A stretch of 64,000 nt of DNA. Source: Candidatus Jettenia sp. AMX2. GTDB lineage: Bacteria > Planctomycetota > Brocadiia > Brocadiales > Brocadiaceae. The translations under genes were made by a program, and so were the position numbers. Of this stretch, positions 32,392 to 59,593 are shown in pieces; position 1 is the first letter of the stretch; each line of letters opens with the position of its first letter. The stretch lies in assembly GCA_030583665.1 (NCBI GenBank), contig CP129469.1, positions 2,905,043 through 2,969,042 of the forward strand. Reading direction: 5' to 3'. The notes below the pieces were generated by a model that was given only the letters and a program-made list of their open reading frames with translations, was not told where the DNA came from and did no database searches.

Positions 32392-32468
32392 CGCGGGGTA
32401 GAGCAGTCTGGCAGCTCGTCGGGCTCATAACCCGGAGGTCGTGGGTTCAAATCCCACCCCCGCTACCA
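32392..32468 (+). tRNA. Initiator tRNA-fMet (anticodon CAT)
   Basis: A 77-base tRNA with the initiator features: unpaired first base (C1 opposite T72), three G-C pairs next to the CAT anticodon loop (GGG...CCC), and an encoded CCA end. The T-arm GGTTCAAATCC is standard. It has its own promoter and terminator. The last 47 bases are repeated at 33089-33135, which marks it as an integration target for a mobile element. No other tRNA is in the window. Confidence 0.97.
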
Positions 32469-32470
32469 AT

Positions 32471-32516
32471 CTAATAAAAAAGGCTTAGAGGAAAACCTCT
32501 AAGCCTTTTTTATTAG
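32471..32516 (+). terminator. Strong terminator after tRNA-fMet
   Basis: A perfect 21-bp stem (32471-32491 with 32496-32516) around an AAAA loop, with A and T tracts built into its arms, so it can work in both directions. Confidence 0.9.
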
Positions 32517-32546
32517 CTTCTAACATTTTCTGGACTCGAAAAGCTA

Positions 32547-32621
32547 CTAGTTAGAATTGCTTTCTGGATATTCAAACGCATAAATAAACACATTCGTATC
32601 AAGAAAAACCCTAAGTTTCAT
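32547..32621 (-). pseudogene. PIN-domain toxin (VapC-like), cut to 24 residues
   Basis: The frame begins MKLRVFLDTNVFIYAFEYPE, the classic first strand of a PIN ribonuclease with its metal-binding Asp, and stops after 24 codons, where a full protein would have about 130. Its ATG overlaps the end of the antitoxin gene by 11 bases, the usual toxin-antitoxin coupling. The missing part falls against the tRNA terminator, so the loss probably came with integration or excision at the tRNA. Confidence 0.75.
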
Positions 32622-32853
32622 CTTCGATTGTTTCCAAATCTTTCTTTAATTGTTTTGGTTTAACTCCTCTTCTCTTATATTTGTTAATCCTATTCCATAG
32701 TACTTCAGGACTAAGGATTCCTAAATCTGAGGCATATTTAATAATCGCCGCCCTTGCTGCTTCATCTTTATTCGGGAAAAGCCCTATCTTGACCATCTTC
32801 TCTAAGGCATCCCCTTCCATTTCTGCCAATTTGATTGCTGTTTCAGTTTTCAT
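32611..32853 (-). CDS. VapB-like antitoxin, orphaned
   Basis: An 80-residue helical protein (start KTETAIKLAEMEGDALEKMV, middle PNKDEAARAAIIKYASDLGI) that resembles the antitoxins encoded before PIN toxins, though the exact family is not certain. Such proteins bind their toxin and their own promoter. Its toxin is the 24-residue remnant next to it, so it now has no toxin to neutralise unless it acts in trans. The stop overlaps the toxin start. Confidence 0.6.
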   Translation of the reverse strand: MKTETAIKLAEMEGDALEKMVKIGLFPNKDEAARAAIIKYASDLGILSPEVLWNRINKYKRRGVKPKQLKKDLETIEDET

Positions 32854-33003
32854 GAATAACCTCTTTTGATGCGTATTTCAAAATAATATTTGTTGTTAAT
32901 CATTGTATACTGGTATTCAGTATAAGACATCCTCATATAAAATCAATCAAACATTTTGGAAATATTCTAACACTTTTCTAACAAACTATCCAAAAACAAC
33001 AGG

Positions 33004-33052
33004 TAAGGCTTTGCTGCTTAATAGCGATAAAATCATTATTAGCAAAGCCTTA
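33004..33052. repeat. Inverted repeat inside the tRNA-flanked segment
   Basis: Perfect 12-bp arms (TAAGGCTTTGCT at 33004-33015 and its complement at 33041-33052) around 25 bases. No T-run follows, so it is not an obvious terminator. It may be a remnant of a mobile element end. Confidence 0.6.
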
Positions 33053-33088
33053 CTTCTTACAGGTTGTTCTTGGTTATGTTTCAAATTT

Positions 33089-33135
33089 GGCTCATAATCC
33101 GGAGGTCGTGGGTTCAAATCCCACCCCCGCTACCA
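33089..33135 (+). repeat. Duplicated 3' part of tRNA-fMet (probable attachment site)
   Basis: 47 bases from the anticodon arm to CCA identical to 32422-32468 except for one C-to-T change at 33098, extending two bases past CCA. The 5' half of the tRNA is missing, so this is not a functional tRNA. It is the classical footprint of site-specific integration into a tRNA 3' end. It is followed by its own terminator. Confidence 0.88.
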
Positions 33136-33145
33136 ATAAAATCAA

Positions 33146-33177
33146 GGGGTTGCAGCGAATGCTGTAGCCCCTTTTTT
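33146..33177 (+). terminator. Terminator following the tRNA fragment
   Basis: An 11-bp stem with two G-U pairs (33146-33156 with 33161-33171), GAAT loop, then six T. It may be the original terminator of the tRNA, separated from it by the insertion. Confidence 0.85.
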
Positions 33178-33181
33178 GTTA

Positions 33182-33519
33182 GATTGCGCTAAATTTGAAC
33201 CAAATTTCATTAGACATTTAGCCGCTTTCTTTTCGAGAAGGACAGTTATTGAAGATACTTTGTAATAACGTATCCAGGTTTATCATAGAGAGATTCATAG
33301 TACAAAGCAGCCTTCGGTTATTTTGCTTGACTATAAAATTGAACAGGCTAAAATCTTTCCATGAGCTCATAAAATTATCGATGTCGTAATGAGTTACACC
33401 TACACTAAGGAAACGTTTTGAGATTAAAATAATTTGATTATTTTAAAAATACACTATTTATCCGGTAAGTAGTTTTTGGACTGTATAGCGAGCCAACGAT
33501 CTACACAAATATCAAGTAA
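33182..33519. other. 338-base stretch without a recognisable gene
   Basis: AT-rich, stop-dense in all frames; no RNA gene, terminator or clear promoter found. It separates the tRNA fragment from the helicase pseudogene and may contain decayed mobile DNA. Confidence 0.5.
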
Positions 33520-34622
33520 ATGCAAATAACACCATATCACGCTAAATATTTTGCATTTGAACTAACAAAACATAACTCATCTGATAGTTTACAAAAATTG
33601 GCTTCCTCTCTTTTAGATGCTCAAGTTGATTTAAACCCACATCAGGTTGAGGCTGCTTTATTTGCATTCCGCTCACCGCTTTCTAAAGGTGCAATATTGG
33701 CAGATGAGGTAAGACTTGGTAAAACAATTGAAGCCGGACTGGTTATTTCACAAAAATGGGCTGAGAGAAAGAGAAAATTTATAATCATTGTACCAGCACA
33801 TCTTTGCAAGCAATGGAACCAGGAACTATCAGAGAAGTTTTTTCATACTTCCATTATTTTGGAGGCATCTTCCTTTAATCAGGAAATTAAAAAAGGAAAC
33901 TTAAACCCTTTTGACCAGAAAGAGATCATCATTTGCTCTTATCACTTTGCAAGGGCAAAAGACGCTTATATCAAGAAAATTAATTGGGATTTAGTAGTTA
34001 TTGATGAGGCTCATCGATTAAGAAATGTTTATAAACCACAGAACAAGATTGCCAATACCATTAAAGATGCAATTGCACATGCACCAAAAGTTCTTCTCAC
34101 TGCAACACCACTTCAAAATTCTTTCTTAGAGATCTACGGATTGGTTAGCATTATTGATGATTATACCTTACCTGCCACAATAAGTCCCCTCTTGGGAGGG
34201 GATTTAGGGGTGGGTTCTCACATCAGATATCTTATAAATCACATCGCCCAAAAACACCAAGCCGAAATTCTGCAAATGAATACTGAACGTAATGCGGGTT
34301 TCTTCGATAACGAAATGGAAAAATTAGACAAATGGGCAGAAAATGTGAAAGGTAGTATGGAAATTGAATTGAAAGAATTAGATAAAGAGATAAAATGCCG
34401 TAAAACAGAAGCAAAAAAATCCTGAATCTTGAGGAAAAGGTACAGGCACATCGGCTGATAAAAGAAATTGAAAAAAAGCGTAATACCTTACGGCTGAACC
34501 TATACCAATCACAGGATGAGGTAGATAACAGGAAAGAAGGGCTGATAGATCAGATAGAGGCACGCTTAAAACAAAAGGTTGAAAAATCAGATTTATTCAC
34601 AATTAGATGGAAACTTATTTAA
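33520..34622 (+). pseudogene. SNF2-type helicase, internally deleted and frameshifted
   Basis: The first ~225 codons are a SNF2/RapA-like helicase start: the Q-like segment LNPHQVEAALFAF, Walker A LADEVRLGKTIEAGLV (the usual DEVGLGKT has Gly changed to Arg), VIDEAHRLRN and LLTATPLQNS. Then a palindromic repeat encodes LLGGDLGVGS, and the frame jumps to a C-terminal piece, so the second helicase domain (motifs IV-VI) is missing. After residue 301 a run of seven A breaks the frame; adding one A restores LEEKVQAHRLIKEIEKKR up to LFTIRWKLI, the usual end of these helicases, at 34622. Total remaining ~370 residues against ~950 in intact relatives. Confidence 0.85.
34182..34217. repeat. Palindromic repeat inside the helicase pseudogene
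   Basis: The core reads CCCCTCTTGGGAGGGGATTT and then AGGGGTGGGTT, the same sequence family as 41217-41251. It sits exactly at the junction where the helicase middle is missing, so it may have promoted or healed the deletion. Confidence 0.8.
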
Positions 34623-40131: not shown

Positions 40132-41857
40132 ACTCACATGGATAGGCAAGGATAACCAGCCGAAGCTGGAGCCGCGGATATTGATTGAAGATCCGGAGAG
40201 GTCTTACGGCGATAAGAACAGTAGCAGCATGCTTATCTACGGTGATAATCTTCTTGCTCTCAAGGCACTTGAGCAGGACTTTGCAGGAAAGATAAAATGC
40301 ATTTATATAGACCCGCCATTCAATACAGGGAGTGCATTTAAATATTATGATGATGGTTTAGAACATTCAATTTGGTTAGGTATGATGAGAGACAGATTAT
40401 GTCTATTACGCAGTCTTCTTGCTAATAACGGAGCAATCTTTGTTCACATAGACTACAATGAAGAAGCATATTTAAGGGTTATTATGGATGAAATTTTTGG
40501 ACGCAAGAATTTTAGAAATACGATAATTATATCTCGTATAAAAAAGAATATTAGGGAACGAGAAAAGGTAAAGGCCTTAAATTATGCTCATGATGTTATA
40601 GTGTTTTATGCAAAAAGTGACGATTGTTTTGTTCTTCCTCCAACAAAATCTGTTGAGAGAAGGGAAAGATGGCATGCCTTTGATGCACCGGGGATAAGAC
40701 CAACTATGGAGTATGAACTTTTTGGGCATCGTCCTCCAGCAGGAAGACATTGGCTTTATGACAAAAATCGTGCAAAGACACTAATAGATAGTGGAGACCT
40801 TCGTTCAAATCCAAGAACGGGTAAACCACAATATAGGATTCCTTCTGGCACAGAGGATATTTGTGATACCTTATGGATAGATATTACTGCTTCATCATTT
40901 AAATGGAATTTCCCAAGTGGAGAAAAGAATGAAAAACTTATTCAACGTATTCTGGAAATGTCTACAATAGAAGGTGATTTTGTTCTTGATTCTTTCCTTG
41001 GCTCGGGTACAACCGCCGCAGTTGCTCATAAAATGAACCGAAGGTGGATAGGCATTGAGCTTGGTGAGCATTGCCATACCCATTGCCTGCCGCGATTGAG
41101 AAAGGTTGTTGACGGTACGGATCAGGGTGGAATATCAAAAATTGTACACACCCCTAACCCCTATCGAAAGGGGAATGAACCCACCCCTAACCCCTCCCAA
41201 GAGGGGAATAAAGAAAGTCCCCTCCCCGGAGGGGATTTAGGGGTGGGTTGGCAAGGCGGCGGTGGCTTCAAATATTACTACTTAGCCCCAAGTCTGTTGA
41301 AAAAGGATAAACACAACAATTGGATAATAGATGAACGTTATAATGCCGATATGCTTGCAGCAGCTATGGCAAAACATGAAGGCTTTAGATACTGCCCGGA
41401 CGAACATATTTACTGGAAACATGGTCGTTCAACTGAAAAAGATTATATATTTACCACAACGCAGTTCGTTACGGTACAGTTTTTAGATAAGATTCATGAA
41501 GAAATGAGATTAGACGAAAGCCTTCTGATTTGTTGTAAATCTTTCCAAGAAGCTTGTGAAAATCGTTACGCTAACATCACCATAAAAAAGATTCCCAAGA
41601 TGTTACTTGGCAGATGTGAATTTGGAAAAGAAGATTATAGTCTGAATATAGTCAATTTGCCGGTTGATTCAGAACCTACCACTGATCCCTACCGGGAAGG
41701 GGACTTGAAGAAGAATCTCACCAAAGTGGAAAATAAAGAAGAACTTGAGCAATCAAATCCTCCTATTTTCCAATCGTCAAAGGGAAGTAATAGACACACG
41801 AGGAAAATGAAAGGACAAAAAAGCCTTTTTCCAGAGAAAGAAGCAAATGAAGGATAG
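40106..41857 (+). CDS. Beta-class adenine DNA methyltransferase (type III Mod-like)
   Basis: A 583-residue SAM-dependent DNA methyltransferase. Start at 40106 (MTNKNQKLEL) is chosen because two fossil copies nearby begin at the same point. The catalytic motif DPPFNTG comes first (residues 69-75) and the SAM loop FLGSGTTAA later (about 297-305), the beta-class order of type III Mod enzymes. The recognition region between them is short. Residues ~348-382 are encoded by a cluster of palindromic repeats (PNPSQEGN, LPGGDLGVGW) and residues ~525-535 by a fourth degenerate copy, so part of the protein is repeat-derived. Its end overlaps yhcG by 11 bases. Confidence 0.85.
   Translation: MTNKNQKLELTWIGKDNQPKLEPRILIEDPERSYGDKNSSSMLIYGDNLLALKALEQDFAGKIKCIYIDPPFNTGSAFKYYDDGLEHSIWLGMMRDRLCLLRSLLANNGAIFVHIDYNEEAYLRVIMDEIFGRKNFRNTIIISRIKKNIREREKVKALNYAHDVIVFYAKSDDCFVLPPTKSVERRERWHAFDAPGIRPTMEYELFGHRPPAGRHWLYDKNRAKTLIDSGDLRSNPRTGKPQYRIPSGTEDICDTLWIDITASSFKWNFPSGEKNEKLIQRILEMSTIEGDFVLDSFLGSGTTAAVAHKMNRRWIGIELGEHCHTHCLPRLRKVVDGTDQGGISKIVHTPNPYRKGNEPTPNPSQEGNKESPLPGGDLGVGWQGGGGFKYYYLAPSLLKKDKHNNWIIDERYNADMLAAAMAKHEGFRYCPDEHIYWKHGRSTEKDYIFTTTQFVTVQFLDKIHEEMRLDESLLICCKSFQEACENRYANITIKKIPKMLLGRCEFGKEDYSLNIVNLPVDSEPTTDPYREGDLKKNLTKVENKEELEQSNPPIFQSSKGSNRHTRKMKGQKSLFPEKEANEG
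41149..41251. repeat. Three palindromic repeat units inside the methyltransferase gene
   Basis: Units 1 and 2 run head to tail (CACCCCTAACCCCT...AGGGGAA at 41149-41176 and 41180-41210) and unit 3 (41217-41251, GGAGGGGATTTAGGGGTGGG) is inverted. Each can form a hairpin. All remain in frame with the gene: 103 bases are translated without a stop. A degenerate fourth unit is at 41682-41712. Confidence 0.85.
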
Positions 41858-45565: not shown

Positions 45566-46020
45566 GATTCATTATCGAAATTTGATAAAATATTGATAGA
45601 GAGAAATAGAAATTTTTGCAAACGAAATAATAAAGGCAAAGAAAAGATTAATGCAAAAGGGGTAATTATATCTATTGGAGAGTAAAAGGGTCACATCTTA
45701 AATATTCAGTTTTAATCTTTTTTGCCTCTATTTTTATAAAAACTCAGGTAGCGTCCAATTACAATTAATACTTAATTTTTAAGATGTGACTCTCTTTCTC
45801 TGATATATTCTATTTTCAAGGTCTGACCCTAAACACTCATTTAAGATGTGTCCCTCTGACCCACTTAGAATTTAGTAGACCCTAATTAATAAAAAGTGTT
45901 CATTTTTTAAAATACGAGTAAAAAATTGAACACTATAGAGGTTGGTTGACTTTCCTAAACTAAATTGTGATAATTAAAAAAGATTTTAGATAATTAGTTC
46001 GCAATATTGGAGATGAGTAG
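45566..46020. other. 455-base gene-free stretch with inverted repeats
   Basis: No gene is seen. Perfect 13-bp arms GTCACATCTTAAA (45690-45702) and its complement (45778-45790) enclose 75 bases, and a third half-site TTTAAGATGTG lies at 45840-45850, giving a composite of palindromic fragments. It may be the remains of a small mobile element; direct evidence of transposition is lacking. The last 60 bases are AT-rich and should contain the HicB promoter. Confidence 0.55.
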
Positions 46021-46224
46021 ATGAAAATTCAAGTAATTTTAGAACCAAGCAATGAAGGTGGGTTTACAGCAATTGTTCCATCACTTCCCGGCTGTATAAG
46101 TGAAGGCAATACCAAAGAGGAAGCATTAAAAAATATTAGAGAAGCCATTGAACTCTATCTCGAACCAGTCGATGATGATCAGAGGTTTACTCCAAATGCA
46201 CAGGTCTTAGAAATTTCCTTATGA
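46021..46224 (+). CDS. hicB: HicB-family antitoxin (pair 1)
   Basis: A 67-residue HicB protein that binds HicA and its own promoter. The partial RNase H fold is visible as GGFTAIVPSLPGCISEGNTK followed by EEALKNIREAIELYLE. It lacks a separate DNA-binding tail, as in short HicB forms. It overlaps the HicA frame by 4 bases (ATGA). No disruption seen. Confidence 0.85.
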   Translation: MKIQVILEPSNEGGFTAIVPSLPGCISEGNTKEEALKNIREAIELYLEPVDDDQRFTPNAQVLEISL

Positions 46225-46478
46225 CAAAAGTTCCGAGTTTGAATTACGGGCAGGTTATCAATGCTTTACATCGTGATGGATGGGTTATTGTTCGTCAAAA
46301 AGGTAGTCACATACGTTTACAAAAACATGCAATGGAAAAAACGTTAAAACTTACAGTTCCAGCCCACAATCCTATAAAGAGGTCTACACTCTGGTGTTGT
46401 TTTCTCATCCAATTTGAATTGGCTTCCAACAAATGCAAACATCCAAGCCATAGTCCTGAAAAGCTGTCTATCCTGTAA
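46221..46478 (+). CDS. hicA: HicA-like toxin with foreign C-terminus (pair 1)
   Basis: The first 57 residues are HicA, an mRNA interferase of the dsRBD fold: NALHRDGWVIVRQKGSHIRL contains the active-site His in GSH, and KLTVPAHNPIKRSTL is the usual end of the core. From position 46392 the sequence no longer resembles HicA (missing the final helix), and an unrelated tail of 28 residues follows. The active site is present, so partial function is possible, but the missing helix and replaced tail suggest a damaged toxin. Classified as coding because the frame is open. Confidence 0.65.
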   Translation: MTKVPSLNYGQVINALHRDGWVIVRQKGSHIRLQKHAMEKTLKLTVPAHNPIKRSTLWCCFLIQFELASNKCKHPSHSPEKLSIL

Positions 46479-46719
46479 ATAAGCGCCTGTTCCGAATCAC
46501 GCCCGGTGTGATCCGCTCCCGGTTCAGGAAAATCAAAGATATACACATCCCTCAAGGCAATCAAAATCCTTCGGAATGGTCATAAAAATCCCAAATGTAA
46601 AATTTATTGCCTATAGCATCAAGAGTAGTATATAATTTGAAATATTTCTTTTATTGATACCTCTTAATTCATTCACCTATTTAAAGTAAAATCAACCCTT
46701 TTAAAAAGGAAGATTGATT

Positions 46720-46953
46720 ATGAAATTACTCAATTATCGAATTTTACTCAGAAAAGAACCAGAGGGTGGCTATACGGTAATTGTCCCTACTTTACCAGGC
46801 TGTATTACCTACGGAGATACTATTGAAGAAGCAATCAAAATGGCAAAAGACGCAATCGAGCTTTATATAGAAAGCTTGAAAATACACGGTGAAGAAATAC
46901 CTACAGAGGAAGATACCTTAGAATATACTTTAACGATAAAATCTCATGACTAA
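46720..46953 (+). CDS. hicB: HicB-family antitoxin (pair 2)
   Basis: A 77-residue HicB (GGYTVIVPTLPGCITYGDTI, EEAIKMAKDAIELYIE) about 57% alike by eye to the first. Start at 46720 has AAAGGAAG upstream; a TTG at 46714 in frame is less likely. The reading frame overlaps the HicA start by 8 bases. Intact. Confidence 0.85.
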   Translation: MKLLNYRILLRKEPEGGYTVIVPTLPGCITYGDTIEEAIKMAKDAIELYIESLKIHGEEIPTEEDTLEYTLTIKSHD

Positions 46954-47172
46954 ACTTCCTCTTCTTACTTCTCAACAGGTTATTAAACTTATTGAAAGAA
47001 AAGGGTTTATTTTGATAGAACAAAAGGCAGCCATCATATTTACTACCACCCGGAAAATAAAAGAAGAGTTGTTGTACCATTTCATAAAAAAGACCTGCCT
47101 AAAGGAACTTTGCATGAAATTTTAAAACAAGCAGGTATAAGCAGGGAAGAAATACAAGAACTTATGAAATAA
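46946..47172 (+). pseudogene. hicA: HicA toxin inactivated by a one-base deletion (pair 2)
   Basis: Starts MTKLPLLTSQQVIKLIERKG. At 47024-47032 the frame breaks within the codons for the active-site loop: restoring one G (QKGSHH) gives the normal remainder SHHIYYHPENKRRVVVPFHK and GTLHEILKQAGISREEIQEL up to a stop at 47172. As it stands, translation ends after 59 codons with an unrelated tail that lacks the His and the C-terminal helix. Confidence 0.85.
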
Positions 47173-47217: not shown

Positions 47218-49917
47218 ATGTCTATACAGAAAATTTGTTATGCATTAAAAACAACATCTTTAAGAAAAGTAAAAAGAGGTTTGAGAAATTTTATCATAGT
47301 TCTGGCTGCATTCCCGATGACAGGCCATTTTCACTGCTATGGGAAAGAGTGGGAAAACCCTACACCTGACCTGTTTAAGGCATCTCAGCAGGCCTCGGTA
47401 TTCTATCTCGATAACGGTATGGAAGTTATCCTCATTGAGAACCATGCAAACCCAATGATTGCAGCAGTTACCCTCGTTAAAACCGGCAGCCGCAATGAAG
47501 ACGCCGCCAGCAACGGGACAGCCCATTTTCTTGAACACCTGCTCTTTAACGGCACAAAAAACCGCACACAGGAAAAAATCTACAGCGAGATGGATTTTTA
47601 CGGTGGTTATAATAACGCTCACACTGCAAGGGATTATACGAATTATATGATTCTTATGCCGAAAGAATACATTGCCCAGGGTATGGACATCCAGGCGGAT
47701 ATGTTGTTTAACTCCACCCTTCCTCCGGAAAAGTTTGAAAAGGAGCGCGGCATTGTAATCGAAGAAATCGGCAAAAGCCTGAACCAGCCAACGTATCAGG
47801 TACAAAATTATTTTCACAGGACATTCTTTGCCGGTACACCTTACGAACGTCCTGTTCTCGGGACGATCTCTACCATCTCACATTTAAAACGTGAGCATGT
47901 ACTCGCATATTATCAAACCTGGTATGTACCCAACAATATGACCTTGATGGTAATCGGTGATTTTTCAATCCCTGACATCATGGAGCTGGTGAAGGAAAAA
48001 TATGGACCATATCCCCCGGGACCACTTCCTGAACATAAACCCGTACAACCTGAACAACCATCACATTTGCATACTGTCAGGATAGATGCGGCTGAAGAAC
48101 TTCCGGAAGATCGTCAGTATCTTACGGTGGCTTACCTGCTGCAATCACCCGTTTCAATAAACATCCCCGCATTGGAACTCCTGGCAGAATTTCTCGGAGG
48201 CAGAGAAACCTCTGTACTGAAAACACTTTTCAAACAGAAACCTTACCTTGGCATGGTCAACAATATCAATGCAGACATGCATTTTAACCGTGATTTTTCA
48301 ACCCTGCAGATTTCTGCAGAACTCCCCCTGGATGCCAATGTGGATAAGGTCATTGAATTAATTGTGCAAAGCGTAGAGAGTATGGCACATAAACCTGTAC
48401 CTGACAGCGAGATAACATCAATTTTGACTGCACATCAAATACAGGAAATTTACCTCCGGGAGCAACTCCATTACTATGCCATGATGAAATCAGGCTATCT
48501 TGCAGCAGGTGGCTATTCCTTTCTTCAGAACTATACAGACAGGCTTATGCAAGTAAAGCCGCTTTCCGTTCTGGAGGTTGCAAAACAACAGGTACAGACC
48601 AAAATACCGGTTGTTATCCTGATATCACCTTCCCGTCGTGCTGCCACTGCTACAGAAACAGGATCGTCAAATCAATATCATAAGGAAACCCTGGAGAACG
48701 GACTGACTGTGGCGGTAAAGGAAAACAAGGACAGCCGGGTTATCGGTATCCACCTCCTAGCCAGGGAACGCAGCTTAAGCGAAGGCAAGGACAGATGGGG
48801 AATGACAGAAATTTTACAGCGGATGCTCATCATGGGTGGTACAGAAAACCATCCGGAAATGGAGCTAAACCAGGCTTTTGAATCCATCGGTGCTGAGTTG
48901 AAATTATATGATAATCCCTATATCCCTTTCGACGATTATTACCACACACCACAATTCGCTTATATTCGTTTAAAACTGATTGATGTTTTTTTTGAAAAAG
49001 GACTGAAACTGCTTGCCGGCATGGTATCAAAACCGCGACTTACAAGAGAGGTCTTTGAACAGGCAAGAAAACAAGTTATATCACTTTCAGCAGCAGATGC
49101 TTTGAGTACACCGGTAGTCGCCAGCCGGCTTTTATATGATACCCTGTTTGCAGAAAATCCCGGCTTCGGCTGGTTACTCGGCGATACAAAAAAACTTGAA
49201 CAGCTTCAGTTAAAGGAGATACAGGAATTTCAACGTAAATTTTATAACCCCGCAAACCTGATACTGGTTATTTCAGGCAATTTGTCCGGGGAAGAGGTGA
49301 TGAAGCTGGTTAAAAAATACCTTGGTGGAACCTGGGGGGAAAGTGGATGGCAGCCACAGGAGTTCACACCGCAATTTCGTAAACCTGACACTACGGTACG
49401 TAAAAAGTTAGGTAAACCACAGTCACATATCTCCCTCACCAGTACCTTTGAGGTGAAGGAAGAGGACAGGCCTGCGCTGGATATTCTTGGCAGTCTTTTT
49501 TCTGACCGGCTCACATTCAATCTACGTGAGAGGCAGGGGCTTGCCTACACCATTGGTACAGGTTTTAAAAAATATCGGGATAGCCAGTGGTACACAATTA
49601 CCATGGGCACACGGCCTGAGAATATAGAACGTGCTGTTGCCGGTATTAAGGAAGAAATTTCTACTATACGGAAAACAACCTTTGATACTGATGAAGTGGA
49701 GAAGACAATCAACGCTGTGATGGGACGCCGTAGCATGAGACGGCTGGACCGAGTCAACCAGGCATATTACATAAGTATGGAACTGCTTGACGGTAGATCT
49801 CCGGAAGCAGATGACCTCTATCATGAGAAGTTGAAGAAGGTTATGCCCCGGGATCTGGAACACCTTGTGAAAAAGGTCTTTAAGGATGACAACTATCTTA
49901 TAGTAATCGTGGAATAA
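47218..49917 (+). CDS. M16 family zinc metallopeptidase, exported
   Basis: An 899-residue protein with two M16 halves. The N-terminal 40 residues contain a hydrophobic segment (FIIVLAAFPMTGHFHCYG), probably a signal peptide. The zinc site HFLEH (inverted HXXEH) lies near residue 104 in NGTAHFLEHLLFNGT, with the distal Glu in ERGIVIEEIGKS. The second half (around 470-899) has the R/Y segment LRERQGLAYTIGTGF typical of the inactive partner domain. Fused active and inactive M16 halves are usual for periplasmic processing or peptide-clearing enzymes. It stands alone after the toxin-antitoxin remnants. Confidence 0.88.
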   Translation: MSIQKICYALKTTSLRKVKRGLRNFIIVLAAFPMTGHFHCYGKEWENPTPDLFKASQQASVFYLDNGMEVILIENHANPMIAAVTLVKTGSRNEDAASNGTAHFLEHLLFNGTKNRTQEKIYSEMDFYGGYNNAHTARDYTNYMILMPKEYIAQGMDIQADMLFNSTLPPEKFEKERGIVIEEIGKSLNQPTYQVQNYFHRTFFAGTPYERPVLGTISTISHLKREHVLAYYQTWYVPNNMTLMVIGDFSIPDIMELVKEKYGPYPPGPLPEHKPVQPEQPSHLHTVRIDAAEELPEDRQYLTVAYLLQSPVSINIPALELLAEFLGGRETSVLKTLFKQKPYLGMVNNINADMHFNRDFSTLQISAELPLDANVDKVIELIVQSVESMAHKPVPDSEITSILTAHQIQEIYLREQLHYYAMMKSGYLAAGGYSFLQNYTDRLMQVKPLSVLEVAKQQVQTKIPVVILISPSRRAATATETGSSNQYHKETLENGLTVAVKENKDSRVIGIHLLARERSLSEGKDRWGMTEILQRMLIMGGTENHPEMELNQAFESIGAELKLYDNPYIPFDDYYHTPQFAYIRLKLIDVFFEKGLKLLAGMVSKPRLTREVFEQARKQVISLSAADALSTPVVASRLLYDTLFAENPGFGWLLGDTKKLEQLQLKEIQEFQRKFYNPANLILVISGNLSGEEVMKLVKKYLGGTWGESGWQPQEFTPQFRKPDTTVRKKLGKPQSHISLTSTFEVKEEDRPALDILGSLFSDRLTFNLRERQGLAYTIGTGFKKYRDSQWYTITMGTRPENIERAVAGIKEEISTIRKTTFDTDEVEKTINAVMGRRSMRRLDRVNQAYYISMELLDGRSPEADDLYHEKLKKVMPRDLEHLVKKVFKDDNYLIVIVE

Positions 49918-49971
49918 AGTATATACCTTAATCCGCTATAAGCTAAATATCACATGTTCAGGATAGTATTA

Positions 49972-50066
49972 AGATTGCTTCGTAGCGGAGTTTGCCTTGA
50001 GTAAAAACGAATGCGATCCTCGCAATGACCATTGAGAAATGTCATTGCAAGCACACAAGCAATCTC
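49972..50066. repeat. Palindromic intergenic element
   Basis: Outer arms AGATTGCTT (49972-49980) and AAGCAATCT (50057-50065) with inner arms GCAATGAC (50022-50029) and GTCATTGC (50041-50048). It is a degenerate form of a widespread type of bacterial intergenic repeat. It lies between the M16 gene and the sensor gene. Confidence 0.65.
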
Positions 50067-50080
50067 TTCCCCTCAATTTT

Positions 50081-52750
50081 TCAGCTTTTCGTTATATCTT
50101 TAAATACACCTTCTATTCTTACAGGATCTCCATTTTTGCCACGTACCAGATTACAGGTTCTTTCCGAAATAAATCGTTCACCGTTTTTCTTCTTCCAATA
50201 TGATATAAAATTCTTCCATATATTTTCTTTTTCCAATTTCTCAATGACTTCTTTTTCATCATCTGGGTTAACACAAATATCCTTAACCCGTGCTCCAATT
50301 ACTTCTGATGGTGAGCTATACCCGAGTATTTCTGCCCCTGCCTGATTAATCCAGGTAAATACCCCGTTTTCTGTAGGTTCACACTGATAAATCCCTTCCT
50401 TTAATGAATTCAGCAGCTGCCGGTAATCTTTTTCAAATGCCGGTATCTCCTCTTCTGATCCCTTTCGTTCCTCAACGTCCCTGAATATTCCATCTATCCG
50501 GACAGGATTACCTCTCTCATCATTAACCAGACTCGCCGTCCGCTCCATAAAAAACTTTTCACCATTCTTTCTTTTACACAGAGATGTAAAATACTTCAAA
50601 ATCCCTTCTTTCTTCAACTTTTTAATCAATTCTTTCCGGTCAATGGGATTGACATAGATATTCTTAACCCGTGTTCCGATTACTTCTGATGGCGAGCTAT
50701 ACCCGAGTATTTCTGCCCCTGCCTGATTAATCCAGGTAAATACCCCGTTTTCTGTAGGTTCACACTGATAAATCCCCTCCTTTAATGAATTCAGCAGTTG
50801 CCGGTAATGCTTTTCCGACTCCTGTAACTTAATTTCTAATTTCTTTCGTGCTGTAATATCTCTGAATATTCCATCAATCCGTACCGGATTGCCCTTTTCA
50901 TCCCTCGACAGGCTTGATGTGCGTTCCATATAAAATTGTTTGCCGTTTTTCCTCTTACAAAGCGAGGAGAACTCCTTCCATACCCCATCCCTCAGGAGCT
51001 TCTCCACCACTGCTTTACGGTCTTCCGGGTTAACATACATATCCTTTACCGGTGTTCCGATCACTTCACCGGGTGACGAATATCCAAGGATTTCTGCCCC
51101 GGCCTGATTCATCCACAGGAATACTCCATCTACCTTTGGCTCTGATTGATAAACCCCTTCCCTGAGTGAATCAAAGAGTAGCCGATATCGTCTCTCTGAT
51201 TCTATAATCTCTGCCTCTGCTTTTTTCCTTTCCGAAATATCTCTGAATACCCCATAGATTGCAATGTTATTTCCCTGCTCATCCTTCAGAAGACTGCTCG
51301 TACGCTCTGCATAGAAACTCTCTCCGTTTTTTCTCTTGCTCAATGATACAAATTCCCTCCATACCCCCTCTCTTTCCAGTTTCTCGCATAATTTTCTCCT
51401 GTCATTAGGATTCACATAGATATTTTTTACCTTCATCCCTATAACCTCTTCCGGAGAGTCATATCCCAGTATCTCTGCCCCTGCCTGGTTAACGAAGGTA
51501 AATACTCCATCCACTCCAGGCTCTGACTTATAAACACCTTCCTTGATTGAATTAAATATCTCCCGGTATCTTTTCTCAGATGTTATGATCTCCTTCGTTT
51601 TCTCTTCAAGGGATTTAGCCATAGCATTGAAGGAATTCGCCAATTCTCCAATCTCGTTTTCCCTTTGAATATTTACCCGTTGCGATAAATCTCCCGACGA
51701 CATCTTCCTTGTTACTTCTGTAAGCTCAATAATGGGTATAGAAAGTTTTTTGCCGACAAGATATGCCACAAGCACAAAGGGGAATGCAAGTATAAGCAGC
51801 ACTGCAGTTACTATGTAATTGAGATTATAAACCACCCCATAGCCTTCATCCTTATCGATCTCTGTTATGATCCCCCAGTTAAACTCAGGCAGCCATCTCC
51901 ATACGCCCAGAACAATCACCCCGCAATAGTCTTTATATCCTTCCGCATCAAAACCATTGATACCGGAAATGCATTGCTGAATACCAGTCGTTAATTTCCC
52001 CGTTTCCTGATTCACCGGCTTCAACTCCAGGGCACACCTCTTTTTTATTAACCCCATTTCCCTCAGATGACCTGCAAATCTGGATTCTGTTAGCATGTAA
52101 CCTTCTTTATTTACCAGATAAGTCTCCCCTGTCCTACCCAGATTCAGGCTCAGCATCAGATCGTTCAGTTTTGTCGCATCAATCCTCAGTGCAACAATAC
52201 CTGTAATATATCCATCGTTGTCTCTCAGCGGAGATGAGACGAACATCGTTGGCAACCCCAGCTCTTTTTCCCCGTATTCACTTATTAACGGAATTTCAGA
52301 GGGAACAATTCCTGATACATATGTCTTTCCCCGGAACGCTTCCTCAAAATAATCCGTCCCGGAAATGTCATTCCCTATTCTCTCCCCCTCTGTAGCAACT
52401 GTTATAATGCCACTTCCATTACTTACCAGAATCCCCTTATATCCAAACTCATTCTTTACTACTTCGAGAAACTGAACAATGTTACCATAGTCCTTGTCTT
52501 TACTTGTAACGGCCGCACCTTTCGCCATGAAAGGATTCATTGCAATGGCACGGACATTCATCATTCTCTCGTGTATCCAATTGGTTACCAGTTCCGCCTG
52601 CTTTTGCCCGATGCCATCAAGGTTTCGGATAATTATTTCCCTAAGGTCTGATTGCACCCGGGGATAAGCTACGACTCTGAGTAAAACAAATGGTAGTAAA
52701 GTAAATGTGATTAACAAAAAAATAAGTCGCCTTTTAATCGAAAAATACAT
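50081..52750 (-). CDS. Membrane sensor with Cache-type, HAMP and four PAS domains, no output domain
   Basis: An 889-residue protein. A membrane helix near residues 8-28, an extracytoplasmic sensing domain (about 35-310; contains SGTDYFEEAFRGKTYVSG, typical of dCache), a second helix near 312-335, a HAMP linker (KKLSIPIIELTEVTRKMSSG), then four PAS domains of about 127 residues each, every one starting EGVY/EGIY with NQAGAEILGY. The protein ends after the last PAS (KDITKS) with no histidine kinase, GGDEF or methyl-accepting domain. The third and fourth PAS are nearly identical over 120 bases, showing recent duplication. Ligands are unknown. Confidence 0.82.
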   Translation of the reverse strand: MYFSIKRRLIFLLITFTLLPFVLLRVVAYPRVQSDLREIIIRNLDGIGQKQAELVTNWIHERMMNVRAIAMNPFMAKGAAVTSKDKDYGNIVQFLEVVKNEFGYKGILVSNGSGIITVATEGERIGNDISGTDYFEEAFRGKTYVSGIVPSEIPLISEYGEKELGLPTMFVSSPLRDNDGYITGIVALRIDATKLNDLMLSLNLGRTGETYLVNKEGYMLTESRFAGHLREMGLIKKRCALELKPVNQETGKLTTGIQQCISGINGFDAEGYKDYCGVIVLGVWRWLPEFNWGIITEIDKDEGYGVVYNLNYIVTAVLLILAFPFVLVAYLVGKKLSIPIIELTEVTRKMSSGDLSQRVNIQRENEIGELANSFNAMAKSLEEKTKEIITSEKRYREIFNSIKEGVYKSEPGVDGVFTFVNQAGAEILGYDSPEEVIGMKVKNIYVNPNDRRKLCEKLEREGVWREFVSLSKRKNGESFYAERTSSLLKDEQGNNIAIYGVFRDISERKKAEAEIIESERRYRLLFDSLREGVYQSEPKVDGVFLWMNQAGAEILGYSSPGEVIGTPVKDMYVNPEDRKAVVEKLLRDGVWKEFSSLCKRKNGKQFYMERTSSLSRDEKGNPVRIDGIFRDITARKKLEIKLQESEKHYRQLLNSLKEGIYQCEPTENGVFTWINQAGAEILGYSSPSEVIGTRVKNIYVNPIDRKELIKKLKKEGILKYFTSLCKRKNGEKFFMERTASLVNDERGNPVRIDGIFRDVEERKGSEEEIPAFEKDYRQLLNSLKEGIYQCEPTENGVFTWINQAGAEILGYSSPSEVIGARVKDICVNPDDEKEVIEKLEKENIWKNFISYWKKKNGERFISERTCNLVRGKNGDPVRIEGVFKDITKS

Positions 52751-53010
52751 ATTTCATCTCCAAATATTTGGTAGAATTTTGTTGGTCAAATAGTATACAA
52801 GATTAGCTTCTTTAGATAAATAAAAAATAATTTCTCCTTGCTTTTAAAGCAAAATAGAAATTATCATAATAGATAAAGTATAGTTTTGTCGAGTTTTATA
52901 TAATCGCACAGAAAAAAATTTAACATTTTTTCACTGATTACTTTATAAAAAGAAAAAACAGAAGCAGTTATTGAATCCTCCGGAACAGTAACCAGTATCA
53001 AACGATAGTT

Positions 53011-53373
53011 ATGTATACAAACAAACATAAAATTATTTTTTCAAAAATCAGTTTTCACAGTATTTTGATACTATGGTTTTTTTTATGCATACTACCTGGT
53101 GACTGTTTGTTGTTAGGATGCACAGAAGAGGCTGTATCCCATTATACCGTAAACGAATCAATCACCATAACCAATAGTAGCAGCAATTGTTTTACCCCGG
53201 AAGATAATCCACACTGCACTATCTGTTGTTTACTCTGTACCCACAATCTCACTATTCATTTGCAGCAAAGCCCGTCTCTTACTTTCACCGGACCCTCTTA
53301 TCGGTTAAGAGGATCACTCCTGAAGTATTTCGATACTATCTTCCAGAATACCTTCTATCGTCCTCCCCGCTAA
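53011..53373 (+). CDS. Small exported Cys-rich protein at the head of the metal-efflux cluster
   Basis: A 120-residue protein with an N-terminal hydrophobic helix (ILILWFFLCILPGDCLLLGC, a possible signal or lipoprotein-like segment) and a short cysteine cluster, NPHCTICCLLCTHN, near residues 70-83. The C-terminus is basic and Tyr/Phe rich. No family is recognised. Its position 227 bases before czcC and the Cys cluster suggest a metal-binding periplasmic protein of the efflux system, which is inference. The region 52751-53010 upstream is AT-rich without a gene. Confidence 0.55.
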   Translation: MYTNKHKIIFSKISFHSILILWFFLCILPGDCLLLGCTEEAVSHYTVNESITITNSSSNCFTPEDNPHCTICCLLCTHNLTIHLQQSPSLTFTGPSYRLRGSLLKYFDTIFQNTFYRPPR

Positions 53374-53600
53374 TTACAATACTTATTTCCTATTGAGGGA
53401 AATACGGAACTGCATAACAGGAAGAAACCACAACAAAAACAGGACTCAGATTATACAGATAAAACAGACTTTGGCATGATCTCAGCCGAACGATTTTACG
53501 CAGATTTTCTTCTGTGAGAATCGATCCTTATAAGAGGGAAAAAGACCTGTAGCAAACCATTAGAGATACTACTACTCCATCTCTTACGAAAGGATTTATT

Positions 53601-54929
53601 ATGTATTTCTATTTTAACCGGAAACTTTCTTTTCAAAGATATACATACGTACTCTCTATTTCTATAATTTTTATGCTTATGTATTTACCATGCTCTCGCT
53701 GGGGAACGATCTTTGGAAATGGTGATCTCAAATTAACGCATAAAAGGATTTCACTTGAGGAAGCCATTACTATTGCAATCGAAAACAACCCGGAATTACA
53801 GGTAACAAAAGATCAGATAGATGCATCCATAGGATTATTAAGACAGTCGAGATTATACCCGAACCCTGTTCTGGAACTCCTTGCTGAAGAAATGCCTACC
53901 CATGAGATTGGATTCCATCAGAGTCAAAACCTTGTAGCTGTAACCCAGCCAATTATCTTAGGTGGCAAGAGGGGTTTAGGCATTAGGATAAGTGAAAAAG
54001 TAAAGGAAAGAGATATATTAGAAAGCGAAGCAGTCTTAATAACCATTATAGCGGATACAAAGAAGGCCTTCTATAAAACCCTTGCAGCACAGGAAGGGCT
54101 CGGTATAGCAAAAAATATTGAAAAAATTACTCATGAAACTTATCAGAGTGAGCAAGCGAGATTTGAGGCAGGTGAGGTACCCATAACGAACGTCCTGAGG
54201 GCAGAAGTAGAGCTGTCAATGGCAAGGAATTCTGTGTTTAACGCCGAAGGTAAACTCCAGAATTCTCTGAAAGAATTACTGAATGTAATGGGAACACCAG
54301 ACGAAACCGTTACCGGCGTAACCGGAAGGCTCTTAATAAAACCGAAGAAATTACTCCTCCACGAACTTGAAGAAAAGATGAAAAACAATCAACCCCTGCT
54401 TAAAGCATCAAGAAAAAACATCGAAATAGCGGAAACAGAGCTCACATTAGAAAAAAGACAGGTTATACCTGATATAAACATTTCGGCTGGCTATAAACGG
54501 CTTAGCCTGGAAAATGTAGATACCATTCAAATGGGCATTGAAATACCGGCCCCGTTCTTTAATCGTAATCAGGGTAACATACAGAAGGGTAAAGCCCTTT
54601 CAAGAAAGGCAAAAAATGAAAATGTATCGGTTTACAATGATTTGCTGTTTCAATTAAAAACAAACTTCCACTCCTATCAGGTAAAACAGAAACAGGTCAT
54701 TGAGTATAAAGACCGGATACTGCCACGGGCAGATGAGTCTCTTACGTTAATTACAGAAGGATACAACGAAGGCGAATTCAGTTATATGGATCTTCTGGAT
54801 ACCAAAAGAATGTGGGCAGAAACGAGGATTTCATATATAGAATCCCTTAAGGATTTCAATCTAGTACTTGCAGATATTGAAAAACTGGCAGTAACTAAAA
54901 TAGAAGAACAATACCAGGGGACAAAATAA
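53601..54929 (+). CDS. czcC: Outer-membrane efflux protein (CzcC/TolC type)
   Basis: A 442-residue TolC-like outer-membrane channel for the efflux pump. It has an N-terminal signal-like segment (SISIIFMLMYLPCSRWG), then paired repeats of coiled-coil and beta segments: SLEEAITIAIENNPELQVTK in the first half and QMGIEIPAPFFNRNQGNIQK in the second. The content is typical of CzcC in the adjacent czcCBA set. AGGA lies about 10 bases before the ATG. Confidence 0.85.
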   Translation: MYFYFNRKLSFQRYTYVLSISIIFMLMYLPCSRWGTIFGNGDLKLTHKRISLEEAITIAIENNPELQVTKDQIDASIGLLRQSRLYPNPVLELLAEEMPTHEIGFHQSQNLVAVTQPIILGGKRGLGIRISEKVKERDILESEAVLITIIADTKKAFYKTLAAQEGLGIAKNIEKITHETYQSEQARFEAGEVPITNVLRAEVELSMARNSVFNAEGKLQNSLKELLNVMGTPDETVTGVTGRLLIKPKKLLLHELEEKMKNNQPLLKASRKNIEIAETELTLEKRQVIPDINISAGYKRLSLENVDTIQMGIEIPAPFFNRNQGNIQKGKALSRKAKNENVSVYNDLLFQLKTNFHSYQVKQKQVIEYKDRILPRADESLTLITEGYNEGEFSYMDLLDTKRMWAETRISYIESLKDFNLVLADIEKLAVTKIEEQYQGTK

Positions 54930-55000
54930 CGTATGTACTTGGTTTTCATTCTTCTCTTAACCCCTTTTATACCTAGCGTCATTAATCAGATACTAAATAT

Positions 55001-55062
55001 GTCATTCCCGCGGAAGCGGGAATTCAGAAAAACACTGGATTCCGGGTCAAACCCGGAATGAC
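55001..55062. repeat. Palindromic repeat pair between czcC and czcB
   Basis: Outer ends GTCATTCC (55001) and GGAATGAC (55062) enclose two hairpins: ATTCCCGC-GGAA-GCGGGAAT (55004-55023) and ATTCCGGGT-CAA-ACCCGGAAT (55039-55059). A remnant of the same family is at 62218. Widespread intergenic repeat type. Confidence 0.85.
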
Positions 55063-55136
55063 AGACGGTCGTAACTTATGTCGCTATGCATAATAATGAA
55101 CTATTTGTTTTAATAAATTTGGAGCAAAGAAATTTT

Positions 55137-56453
55137 ATGACCTATTTATCACTTATCATACGAATAATCCTCTGTACGGTTATTCTCTTATTTACGGGAT
55201 TTCTTCAGAATGTTTCTGCACATCAGAGTTGTCAGGATACACAGAAAGACGAAATATGCCCCGCACATGGTGTTCTAAAAGATACATGTTCTCTCTGTAA
55301 TCATACGATGAAAAACGATAGGTATAAAGAATTCTTAGAAAAACAATGCGAACATAACATCTCCGTTCTTGAATGCAATGGATGCCGTCATGAGATTGGG
55401 GCCGTCAGGATTGATCCATCGATAGTAGGAGAAATTATTACGATCAAAGACGCCAGGTCATCAAATATCGATATTACCCTCAAAGCAACGGGAGAAGTCG
55501 GGTTTAATCAGGACCGTTTTGTTATTGTTGCCCCAAGGGTATCCGGAGTTGTTAAAGAGGTACTTGTGGGTCTGGGAGACCGTGTGGAAAAGGGACAGGT
55601 ATTGGCCCTGCTGGATAGTATAGAATTGGGGAAATTCAAAGCTGATTATATGAAGTCGAAGGCCTTGATGGAATTCACCGAAAAGACCTATCACAGGGAA
55701 ATGTCTCTTTATAACAAGAATATCATCTCTGAAAAAAGACTTCAGGAGGCCGCTGCTGCTTATGAACAGGCACAGATTGCATTAAAATCGCTCAGGGAGA
55801 AATTAAAACTTATGGGACAACAGGAGAGCGATATTCAAGATATAGAAGAAGGCCACGTATCCTCACTGATTACCGTCACGGCCCCTTTCGACGGTACGGT
55901 AATTAAAAGAAATGCATCTGTTGGAGGACTGAAAGACGCCTTTACACCACTCTTCACCATCTCAGACTTAACACATTTGTGGGTATGGTTTGATATTTAC
56001 GAAAAAGATATCACAAAGGTCAGGATGGGAAGCAGGGTAGCAATATCTGTCGCTTCCTACCCGGGAGAACAGTTTGAAGGACTTGTTACTTATATCGGAG
56101 CTACCATTGATGAAAGGACGAGAACTGTAAAGGTCCGGGCAGAAATCGACAATCAGCATGGAAAATTAAAACCGGGTATGTTTGCCCGGATACTGCTCCA
56201 GGTAGAGACGGGAGGCGATTCACCGGTAGTACCTGAAGAAACTGTTCAGACAGACGGACAAAGGCACTTTATCTTTGTACCTCTTAAAGAGGGATACTTC
56301 TTAAGACGGGATGTAACTATTGGCACGCGCATGAACGGCTATGTGAAGATTCTCAATGGCTTACATAAGAATGACCGGGTGGTTGTCAATGGCAGTTTCC
56401 TGCTTAAGTCTGAGCTTATGAAGGAACAGTTTGGAGAGGGGTGCATACACTAG
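55137..56453 (+). CDS. czcB: Efflux pump periplasmic adaptor (CzcB type) with Cys-rich N-terminus
   Basis: A 438-residue membrane-fusion protein linking the inner-membrane pump to the channel. The ATG at 55137 is chosen over 55086 because GGAG lies upstream and a signal peptide (LSLIIRIILCTVILLFTGFL) follows. After it comes an extra segment of about 60 residues with cysteines and histidines (CPAHG, CSLCNHTMK, CNGCRHEIG) that could bind metal before the lipoyl domain (VVKEVLVGLGDRVEKGQVLA), alpha-hairpin and barrel. Such Cys/His N-terminal extensions occur in metal-efflux adaptors. It overlaps the 56441 in-frame start of czcA, with the ATG of czcA at 56459. Confidence 0.85.
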   Translation: MTYLSLIIRIILCTVILLFTGFLQNVSAHQSCQDTQKDEICPAHGVLKDTCSLCNHTMKNDRYKEFLEKQCEHNISVLECNGCRHEIGAVRIDPSIVGEIITIKDARSSNIDITLKATGEVGFNQDRFVIVAPRVSGVVKEVLVGLGDRVEKGQVLALLDSIELGKFKADYMKSKALMEFTEKTYHREMSLYNKNIISEKRLQEAAAAYEQAQIALKSLREKLKLMGQQESDIQDIEEGHVSSLITVTAPFDGTVIKRNASVGGLKDAFTPLFTISDLTHLWVWFDIYEKDITKVRMGSRVAISVASYPGEQFEGLVTYIGATIDERTRTVKVRAEIDNQHGKLKPGMFARILLQVETGGDSPVVPEETVQTDGQRHFIFVPLKEGYFLRRDVTIGTRMNGYVKILNGLHKNDRVVVNGSFLLKSELMKEQFGEGCIH

Positions 56454-56458
56454 TCTTT

Positions 56459-59400
56459 ATGATAAATAACCTTATCGGGTATGCATTAAAGCAGGTCTTC
56501 CTGGTTATTATTGCCCTCTGTGTAATCATAGGAATAGGAATCTACTATACCAACCGCCTGCCAATTGATGCCATTCCCGATGTAACAACAAACCAGGTAC
56601 AGATTAATACCGAGGTATCCGGACTCGGCCCTGTCGAAGTAGAAAAACTTATTACCTTCCCCATTGAATTCTCTATGAGCAGTTTACCGGATGTTGCAGA
56701 GGTACGATCTCTTTCAAAGACAGGACTTTCACAAGTTACCGTAACATTTAACGACCATGTAAATATCTATTTTGCCAGGCAGTTAGTACTTGAGCGTTTG
56801 CAGGAGGCAAAAGAACAACTCCCGCAGGTTTTAATGGCTCAACCTACTATGGGACCGATTAGTACAGGTCTTGGTGAAATTTACCAATACATAGTTACCG
56901 GTGTGGACAAAGATAATATGGAACTCAGAACGATACAGGACTGGATGATCAGACCACGGCTGCTTACCACCCCGGGGGTTATCGAGGTCAATAGCTTCGG
57001 TGGCTTCGTAAAACAGTATCAGGTGATTGTTGACCCTGGCAAGCTTATTTCCTATAACATTACCCTGCGTGAGGTCTTTGATGCCCTCGCAGTTAACAAT
57101 GCCAATGCCGGCGGGCAATATATAGAGCATGCCTCTGAACAATATCTTATAAGGGGGATAGGTCTTGTTACCTCCCTTCAGGACATCGAAGATATCGTCG
57201 TCCATGCTACAGAAGAAGGCACCCCCGTTTATATAAAAAATCTTGCAGACGTAAAGCTGGGACCGGAGGTACGCTACGGCGCAGTTACCAAAGACGGTAA
57301 GGGAGAAGTTGTTACCGGTATTGCCATGATGCTGAAAGGTGAAAACAGCCGCACGGTAGCCGGAATGATAAAACAAAAGATCGAAGATATCAAACTCAGC
57401 CTCCCCAAAGGTGTATCTATAATCCCGTTTTATGATCGCACAGACCTTGTCAATAACGTTATCCATACGGTATTTGCAAATCTTACTTCCGGTATTATCC
57501 TGGTAGTTGGCATCCTTTTTTTATTCCTGGGAAATTGGAGAGGTGCCCTCCTGGTAGCATTCTCTATTCCACTAACAGGCTTATTAACGTTTTCCGGTAT
57601 GTACCAGTTAGGTATTGCTGCCACGGTAATGAGCCTTGGTGCCCTGGATTTTGGCATGGTTATTGACGGTTCTGTTGTTATGGTAGAAAATATCATAAGA
57701 CGTATTGCCCGCAAAGACAGCGGGAAGCCTACCACGGGAAAAGGAAATCATTACAGGGAAACGATATCCCTTGCAGCACAAGAGGTAGGACGTCCCATTT
57801 TCTTTGCTGTAAGTATTATCATTATCGTATACCTGCCTATCTTAACCCTTCAGGGTATTGAAGGAAAGATGTTCAAACCTATGGCCTTTACGGTATGCCT
57901 TGCTATGTTGAGTTCCCTCCTTATAACCCTCTTTATTATGCCTCCCCTGTGCTCTGTCATTTTTAGAAAGGGAATACAGGAAAGATCCTATGAGGGTGAA
58001 ATCGATAACCGTATTATGCGGTTCTTAAAAAGGCGTTACCAACCGTTATTACACAAAGCTATCTCTCGTCCAAAAATAACCATTACTGCCGCTGCCACCT
58101 GCTTCGCTGGAAGCCTTCTCTTCATTCCTTTTTTAGGCTCAGAATTTATCCCTGAACTGGACGAAGGTGCAATTGCAATTAATGTGGTACGGCTCCCCAG
58201 CATTTCCCTGACGGAATCGCTTGAGAACTGCACGTTTATAGAAAAAGTTCTTATGAAATACCCTGAAGTGGAAACAGTTATATCCAAAACCGGTAGAGCA
58301 GAGATTGCCACAGACCCTATGGGCCAGGAAACCAGTGATATATTTGTCATGCTCAAACCCAAAAAAACCTGGCAAACTGCAAAGACAAAGGAGGATCTGA
58401 CAACATTGATGAGAGAGGATCTGGAAAGGATCCCTGGCATACAATTCAGTTTTTCTCAACCTATTGAGCTGAGGATAAGCGAACTGGTAGCAGGTGTACG
58501 TTCCGATATCGCTGTTAAACTTTTTGGAGAAGATTTTGAAGTACTGAAGCCAAAAGCAAAGGAGATTGAACGGGTCATTGCCTCTATCCGGGGATCCCGG
58601 GATACAAAAACAGAACAGGTAGGAGGATTGTTCGTAGTGGAAATCAGGATCAACCGCAGCGCTATTGCCCGCTATGGGATTAATGTATCGGATATACAGG
58701 AAGTTATTACCACTGCTATTGGCGGTAAGGTAGCTTCCCAGGTGCTGGAAGGTCAAATGCGGTTCGATCTCGTAGTCCGTTTCGCAGAAGAAGCAAGGAG
58801 CAATATAGAAGAAATCAGGAATATCCTGATCAATACCCCCGGCGGCTCGCGTGTACCGCTCTCGCAACTGGCAGATATTTCCCTTGAAGAAGGACCTGCA
58901 CAGATCAACCGGGAAAACGGGCATCGCCGTATCGTGGTTGAATGCAACGTACGGGGCAGGGATATCGGCAGTTTTGTAGCAGAGGCACAAAAGATGATCA
59001 GGGAAAAAGTGGAAATCCCTGCAGGATACTACCTGGAGTGGGGTGGTCAATTTGAAAATATGCAGCGGGCAACAAAACGTCTCGCTCTTGTTGTCCCCAT
59101 TGCCATGAGCTTGATTTTTATCCTCCTCTACATAAATTTTCAGTCCTTAAGAAACGCTGCCCTTATCTATATAAACGTCCCCTTTGCGGCAACAGGTGGA
59201 ATTGTAGCATTATTTCTAAGGGATATGCATTTTAGTATTTCAGCAGGAATTGGGTTTATTGCCCTTTTTGGTCTGTGCGTTCTGAACGGTACCGTTATGG
59301 TATCGTACATTAACGAATTACGGCAAAACGGCAAAGAGATGGAAAATGCCGTCACCGAAGGTGCTTTAACCAGGCTCAGACCTGTTCTTATGACTGTTAC

Positions 59401-59587: not shown

Positions 59588-59593
59588 AGAACA

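What the first reader, a model, noticed from the sequence alone, without database searches (positions are those of the whole stretch)
32392..33135. Duplication of the tRNA-fMet 3' end and a truncated toxin between copies
Forty-seven bases of the initiator tRNA recur at 33089-33135 with one change, a typical integration footprint, and both copies have their own terminators. Only 620 bases separate them, holding an antitoxin with a toxin cut to 24 codons, and no integrase is present. The picture is of a large element that was reduced to its edge. Use of the initiator tRNA as the target is less common than elongator tRNAs. The broken defence island begins right after the second copy.
Basis: seen in the sequence. 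Interest (0 to 1): 0.6.

Follow-up and report, generated by a model that had tools for sequence, protein, structure and literature searches.

The report
Collapsed genomic island at initiator tRNA
In an anammox-lineage bacterium, a mobile DNA island that had inserted into the gene for the protein-starting tRNA has lost almost everything except its two ends, leaving a 667-base scar; this is a common kind of event, but related genomes let it be read here almost base by base.

Summary
tRNA-fMet (32392-32468) is followed 667 bp on by a displaced copy of its 3' part: 49 bp with one change (32422-32470 and 33089-33137). There is no third copy in the complete genome. (1) Joining the two outer flanks recreates the single-copy site of the sister species (78% over 250 bp, running across the join). 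(2) G012, a related genome, has the occupied site: tRNA-fMet, intact tyrosine integrase, about 19 kb with CBASS and type III R-M genes, the same antitoxin (90%), the same right end, then a tRNA tail. (3) Eight displaced tails in seven genomes all begin at the anticodon loop CTCATAA. Corrections: both edges survive, because the DNA after the tRNA (to about 32550) is the 3' end of that integrase gene, joined at 32549-32553 to codon 22-23 of a PIN toxin gene. One internal deletion explains the scar. The defence genes from 33.5 kb lie outside the repeat-bracketed unit and cannot be assigned to this element. Verdict: a damaged member of a well-known kind, the tRNA-integrated genomic island of the anticodon-loop class.

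The parts
32392..32468 (+). tRNA-fMet gene (rebuilt target; left attachment site), the only initiator tRNA gene seen in this genome
   Evidence: ARAGORN and Rfam; next best genome hits are an elongator-type tRNA-Met and a tRNA-Pro
32422..32470 (+). Repeat copy 1; anticodon-loop bases CTCATAA at 32424-32430 are the inferred crossover
32471..32516 (+). Terminator hairpin supplied by the element
   Evidence: fold -30.1 kcal/mol, z -9.3; like the DNA after tRNA-fMet in G012
32471..32550 (-). Remnant of the 3' end of a tyrosine integrase gene (left edge of the element)
   Evidence: 74% over 89 bp to the intact G012 gene and 82% over 78 bp to a broken copy in G012; tblastn to intA residues 361-404
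32549..32553 (.). Deletion junction: integrase tail joined to toxin gene
   Evidence: the matches to the G012 integrase gene and the G008 toxin gene meet here
32547..32621 (-). PIN-toxin gene cut to 24 codons
   Evidence: 91.5% over 59 bp to the longer G008 gene, a PIN domain protein
32611..32853 (-). Orphan antitoxin, 80 aa
   Evidence: 90% identical to the antitoxin at the end of the G012 island, 74% to G008; dN 0.046, dS 0.203 against G012
32951..33088 (.). Right end of the element, with a 13-bp inverted repeat (33003-33015 / 33041-33053)
   Evidence: conserved up to the tRNA tail in G012 and, over 150 bp at 72%, in G026
33089..33137 (+). Repeat copy 2: displaced tRNA-fMet 3' part (right attachment site)
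33138..33204 (.). Host DNA that formerly followed the tRNA: terminator 33144-33173 and a short stretch like the end of an intB-type integrase gene (33145-33204, minus)
   Evidence: matches DNA after the single tRNA-fMet of G001 and others; 65% over 20 aa to intB of G005; fold -23.1

Best explanation
A tyrosine-integrase island inserted into tRNA-fMet by strand exchange in the 7-base anticodon loop. Insertion rebuilt the tRNA with the island's own copy of the 3' half and its own terminator, and pushed the host's original 3' half and terminator to the far end. Later an internal deletion fused the last ~80 bp of the integrase gene, next to the tRNA, to codon 22-23 of a PIN toxin gene near the far end, removing the integrase, the cargo and most of the toxin gene. 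The 667-bp remainder holds both attachment sites, both element ends and an orphan antitoxin, and no matching integrase exists in the genome, so it should be immobile. Shown by sequence: the repeat, both element ends, the chimeric junction, the empty-site match, the occupied site in a relative. Inferred: exact crossover, order of events, a single deletion, and a lost segment of perhaps 14-37 kb by analogy with relatives.
For: Repeat beyond chance. Joined outer flanks match the single-copy site of the same-genus relative across the join. Occupied site in G012 with intact integrase, cargo, same antitoxin and same right end. Integrase tail and toxin stub meet at one point. All eight displaced tails in seven genomes start at the anticodon loop. 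Integrases related to G012's sit 13-14 bp from tRNA-fMet in G020 and G026 of another family. No relative of the G012 integrase in this genome beyond a 25% match to a Xer-like protein.
Against: The full island has not been seen in the window's own species or genus; the comparison is with another genus. The integrase tail is short (about 80 bp) and frameshifted. In G012 the toxin gene is itself cut, at another point, so the right-end region is prone to breakage and the history here may have had more than one step.
Confidence: 0.9

Rival explanations
1. Old local duplication of the tRNA 3' end, unrelated to integration.
For: The two copies are close together and no integrase gene is intact between them.
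Against: The copy starts exactly at the anticodon loop, as in seven other cases; different terminators follow the two copies, one like that of an island and one like that of the empty site; the intervening DNA matches the two ends of an island.
Confidence: 0.03
2. A compact, non-autonomous element (miniature island) that inserted as a 667-bp unit and was moved by an integrase acting in trans.
For: It keeps both attachment sites and both element ends.
Against: No second example of the compact unit was seen in the genomes searched; the toxin stub and integrase tail look like deletion products; no matching integrase in this genome.
Confidence: 0.07
3. Tandem accretion: the second copy was also the left end of an older intB-type island, and the defence genes from 33.5 kb are the remains of that second island. 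This adds to the best explanation and does not replace it.
For: DNA after copy 2 resembles the 3' end of the intact intB gene of G005 (80% over 60 bp; 65% over 20 aa), and G005 carries an intB island of ~36.7 kb at this tRNA. In G012 a broken second integrase copy lies behind its displaced tail.
Against: No third repeat copy in the genome. The intB-like tail follows tRNA-fMet in most of the family, so it may be ancestral. The SPFH gene right of the tRNA in G001 lies ~205 kb away on the other strand here, so rearrangement can also explain the foreign neighbour.
Confidence: 0.3

Closest known systems
Genomic islands in tRNA genes with anticodon-centred attachment sites (Islander, PMC4383910)
   Same: Intact tRNA plus displaced 3' fragment mark the ends; same anticodon-loop class (2083 of 3919 Islander islands); integrase gene next to the tRNA in relatives; 148 Islander islands are listed as damaged.
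   Different: Only 667 bp and an integrase tail remain; Islander's filter requires an integrase gene, so a remnant like this would be missed.
G012 island at tRNA-fMet (L032-L033, same bacterial family)
   Same: Same target, same boundary at the anticodon loop, same integrase-gene end, same antitoxin, same right end.
   Different: Keeps the integrase and about 19 kb of cargo (type II CBASS-like set, type III R-M); its toxin gene is cut at another point.
PYG1 island of Pyrococcus yayanosii and similar tRNA fragments (PMC9897764)
   Same: Direct repeat (44 bp there) of a tRNA part bounding an island; fragment left beside the intact gene.
   Different: tRNA-Gln, ~21.4 kb, still full length.
Sinorhizobium meliloti phage-related sequences and tRNA integration hot spots (PMC11476347)
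   Same: tRNA genes as integration hot spots; initiator tRNA genes are involved.
   Different: Mostly larger phage-related sequences, some carrying extra whole tRNA genes.

Membership tests
tRNA-integrated genomic island (anticodon-loop class) | intact tRNA gene and a same-strand displaced 3' fragment downstream | tested here: met
tRNA-integrated genomic island (anticodon-loop class) | repeat begins at the anticodon loop | tested here: met
   tRNA base 33, first base of CTCATAA; same in eight tails of seven genomes
tRNA-integrated genomic island (anticodon-loop class) | empty site in a close relative | tested here: met
   G001 beside purD, 78% over 250 bp across the join
tRNA-integrated genomic island (anticodon-loop class) | tyrosine integrase gene inside the element | tested here: not met
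   only a ~80-bp 3' remnant; intact in G012, G020, G026. Hence a remnant, not a working island
tRNA-integrated genomic island (anticodon-loop class) | excision and integration at these sites | not testable with these tools
   needs an experiment
PIN toxin / antitoxin pair (VapBC-like) | toxin with a PIN domain | tested here: inconclusive
   24 codons remain here; the 108-aa G008 homologue matches Pfam PIN_3, E 2.9e-11
PIN toxin / antitoxin pair (VapBC-like) | small antitoxin gene directly upstream, overlapping the toxin start | tested here: met
   32611-32853 overlaps the toxin start by 11 bases; the antitoxin itself matches no Pfam family

The most novel reading that the evidence does not exclude
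An integrase lineage dedicated to tRNA-fMet moves defence-gene islands through the initiator tRNA gene across the anammox order, and collapsed units such as this one can still be moved in trans as miniature islands.
Probability: 0.08. Interest if true: 0.45.

Novelty: new member of a known kind. Interest (0 to 1): 0.25.

Why it matters
It shows initiator tRNA as a recurrent island target in the anammox family, and gives a case where the empty, occupied and collapsed states of one site can be laid side by side with the deletion junction placed to within a few bases. It also implies that the 3' half and the terminator of this genome's only initiator tRNA gene came from a mobile element. Mechanistically it is ordinary.

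Tried and rejected
Third copy of the repeat: none in window or genome. Right boundary of the defence genes at 45.6-47.2 kb: no tRNA tail. A 42-bp match there (about 45800-45841) to DNA just upstream of a second tRNA-fMet in G001 was followed up; parts of it recur elsewhere in G001, so I did not use it. Ancestral right neighbour: the SPFH gene beside the tRNA in G001 lies ~205 kb away and inverted in this genome; no tRNA tail or integrase tail lies near it. Papers on fMet islands in anammox bacteria: nothing specific found. The displaced tails of G031 and G038 were read for their boundaries only; their surroundings were not worked out. Structure prediction was not used, since sequence evidence settled the question.

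Full report
Observation. The tRNA-fMet gene lies at 32392-32468. Its bases from 32422 on, plus two bases beyond the gene, recur at 33089-33137: 49 bp with one mismatch, never found in shuffles. The genome (one contig, 3.46 Mb) holds no third copy. Both copies are followed by strong hairpins with T-rich ends. Between them are an 80-aa antitoxin ORF and a 24-codon toxin stub on the minus strand.

Organism. The purD gene left of the tRNA finds its best named relative in Candidatus Loosdrechtia aerotolerans (79%), with Brocadia and other Planctomycetota next. The window is therefore from the anammox family Brocadiaceae.

Empty site. Joining the window's left flank through copy 1 to the DNA after copy 2 gives a sequence that aligns to the purD-linked tRNA-fMet of G001 at 78% over 250 bp across the join, and to a second tRNA-fMet gene of G001 at 93.7% over 142 bp. 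The 667 bp are an insertion relative to that state.

Occupied sites. In G012 the same tRNA is followed at once by a 405-aa tyrosine integrase (Pfam Phage_integrase, E 4.6e-25), two HTH proteins, a CBASS-like set (cyclase, E1-E2, JAB, SAVED endonuclease), a type III methyltransferase and a restriction-like gene, then the same antitoxin (90%) and the tRNA tail, about 19.2 kb from the tRNA. G005 has a different integrase (intB) and its tail 36.7 kb on. G020 and G026, in another family of the order, have integrases 32-33% identical to G012's, 13-14 bp from tRNA-fMet and in the same orientation. In G026 the tail is about 14.4 kb on, and its right end resembles the window's at 72% over 150 bp.

Crossover. 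Eight displaced tails in seven genomes were compared with the intact tRNA of the same genome. All begin at the first base of the 7-base anticodon loop, CTCATAA, with identity stopping 0-4 bases further upstream. This is the anticodon-centred class, 2083 of 3919 islands in Islander (PMC4383910). That strand exchange happens there is inferred from these boundaries and from the known behaviour of the class.

Both edges survive. Window 32471-32550 matches the 3' end of the G012 integrase gene (74% over 89 bp; 82% over 78 bp to a broken copy in G012). Window 32552-32610 matches the longer toxin gene of G008 (91.5% over 59 bp), which continues there and encodes a PIN domain. The two matches meet at 32549-32553. 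A single internal deletion joining integrase tail to toxin codon 22-23 is the simplest account; several steps are not excluded. The antitoxin ORF is intact and differs from G012's mainly at silent sites (dN 0.046, dS 0.203), though much of that divergence may predate the deletion.

What lies beyond. The DNA after the second copy is what follows tRNA-fMet in relatives, so it is the host's old sequence. It also resembles the end of the intB gene, here and in most of the family, so an older integration scar is possible but cannot be dated. The genes from 33.5 to 45.6 kb (truncated DrmD-like helicase, type III methyltransferase and restriction subunit, DUF1016/YhcG nuclease, an IS3-like insertion) lie outside the bracketed unit. 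No tRNA tail closes them on the right, and in relatives the genes on their right are far from tRNA-fMet. I do not assign them to this element.

Judgement. A well-supported event of a well-known kind, in damaged form. Its interest lies in how completely the site can be read, and in the repeated use of tRNA-fMet by defence-carrying islands in this family.

Noticed in passing
window 34182-34216 and 41143-41249: A G+C-rich palindromic repeat (AAGTCCCCTC..GAGGGGATTTAGGGGTGGGTT) lies where the DrmD-like helicase homology stops and again inside the methyltransferase ORF; near-identical copies occur in G012 and G005. It looks like a small insertion element that broke the helicase gene.
   Followed up: partly
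window 46021-47125: Two successive HicBA-type toxin-antitoxin pairs (HicB 46021, HicA 46221, HicB 46714; the second HicA at 46946 gets no Pfam match and may be broken) between the defence genes and the M16 peptidase.
   Followed up: partly
L049, L051, L055, L058 (tRNA-Pro GGG loci of relatives): intB-like integrases or their fragments also sit beside tRNA-Pro(GGG) in several relatives, and the tRNA-Pro tail plus terminator resembles the second repeat copy.
   Followed up: partly
L039 10535-10611 (G001 C23): The sister species has a second, full-length tRNA-fMet gene near argS and trpS, whose flanks resemble the window's joined site even more closely than the purD-linked one does. In G020 and G026 tRNA-fMet also sits beside an argS-like gene.
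   Followed up: partly
window 47218-61699: The M16 peptidase and the PAS/efflux block are close together in G012 and G001 but in another relative order and far from tRNA-fMet in G012, pointing to an inversion or other rearrangement near the right side of the defence genes.
   Followed up: partly
L032 2231-3448 (G012 integrase): This integrase ORF has no stop before the tRNA and reads into its antisense strand (ending LVAGVGFEPTASGL), unlike its relatives in G020 and G026, which stop 13-14 bp short.
   Followed up: no
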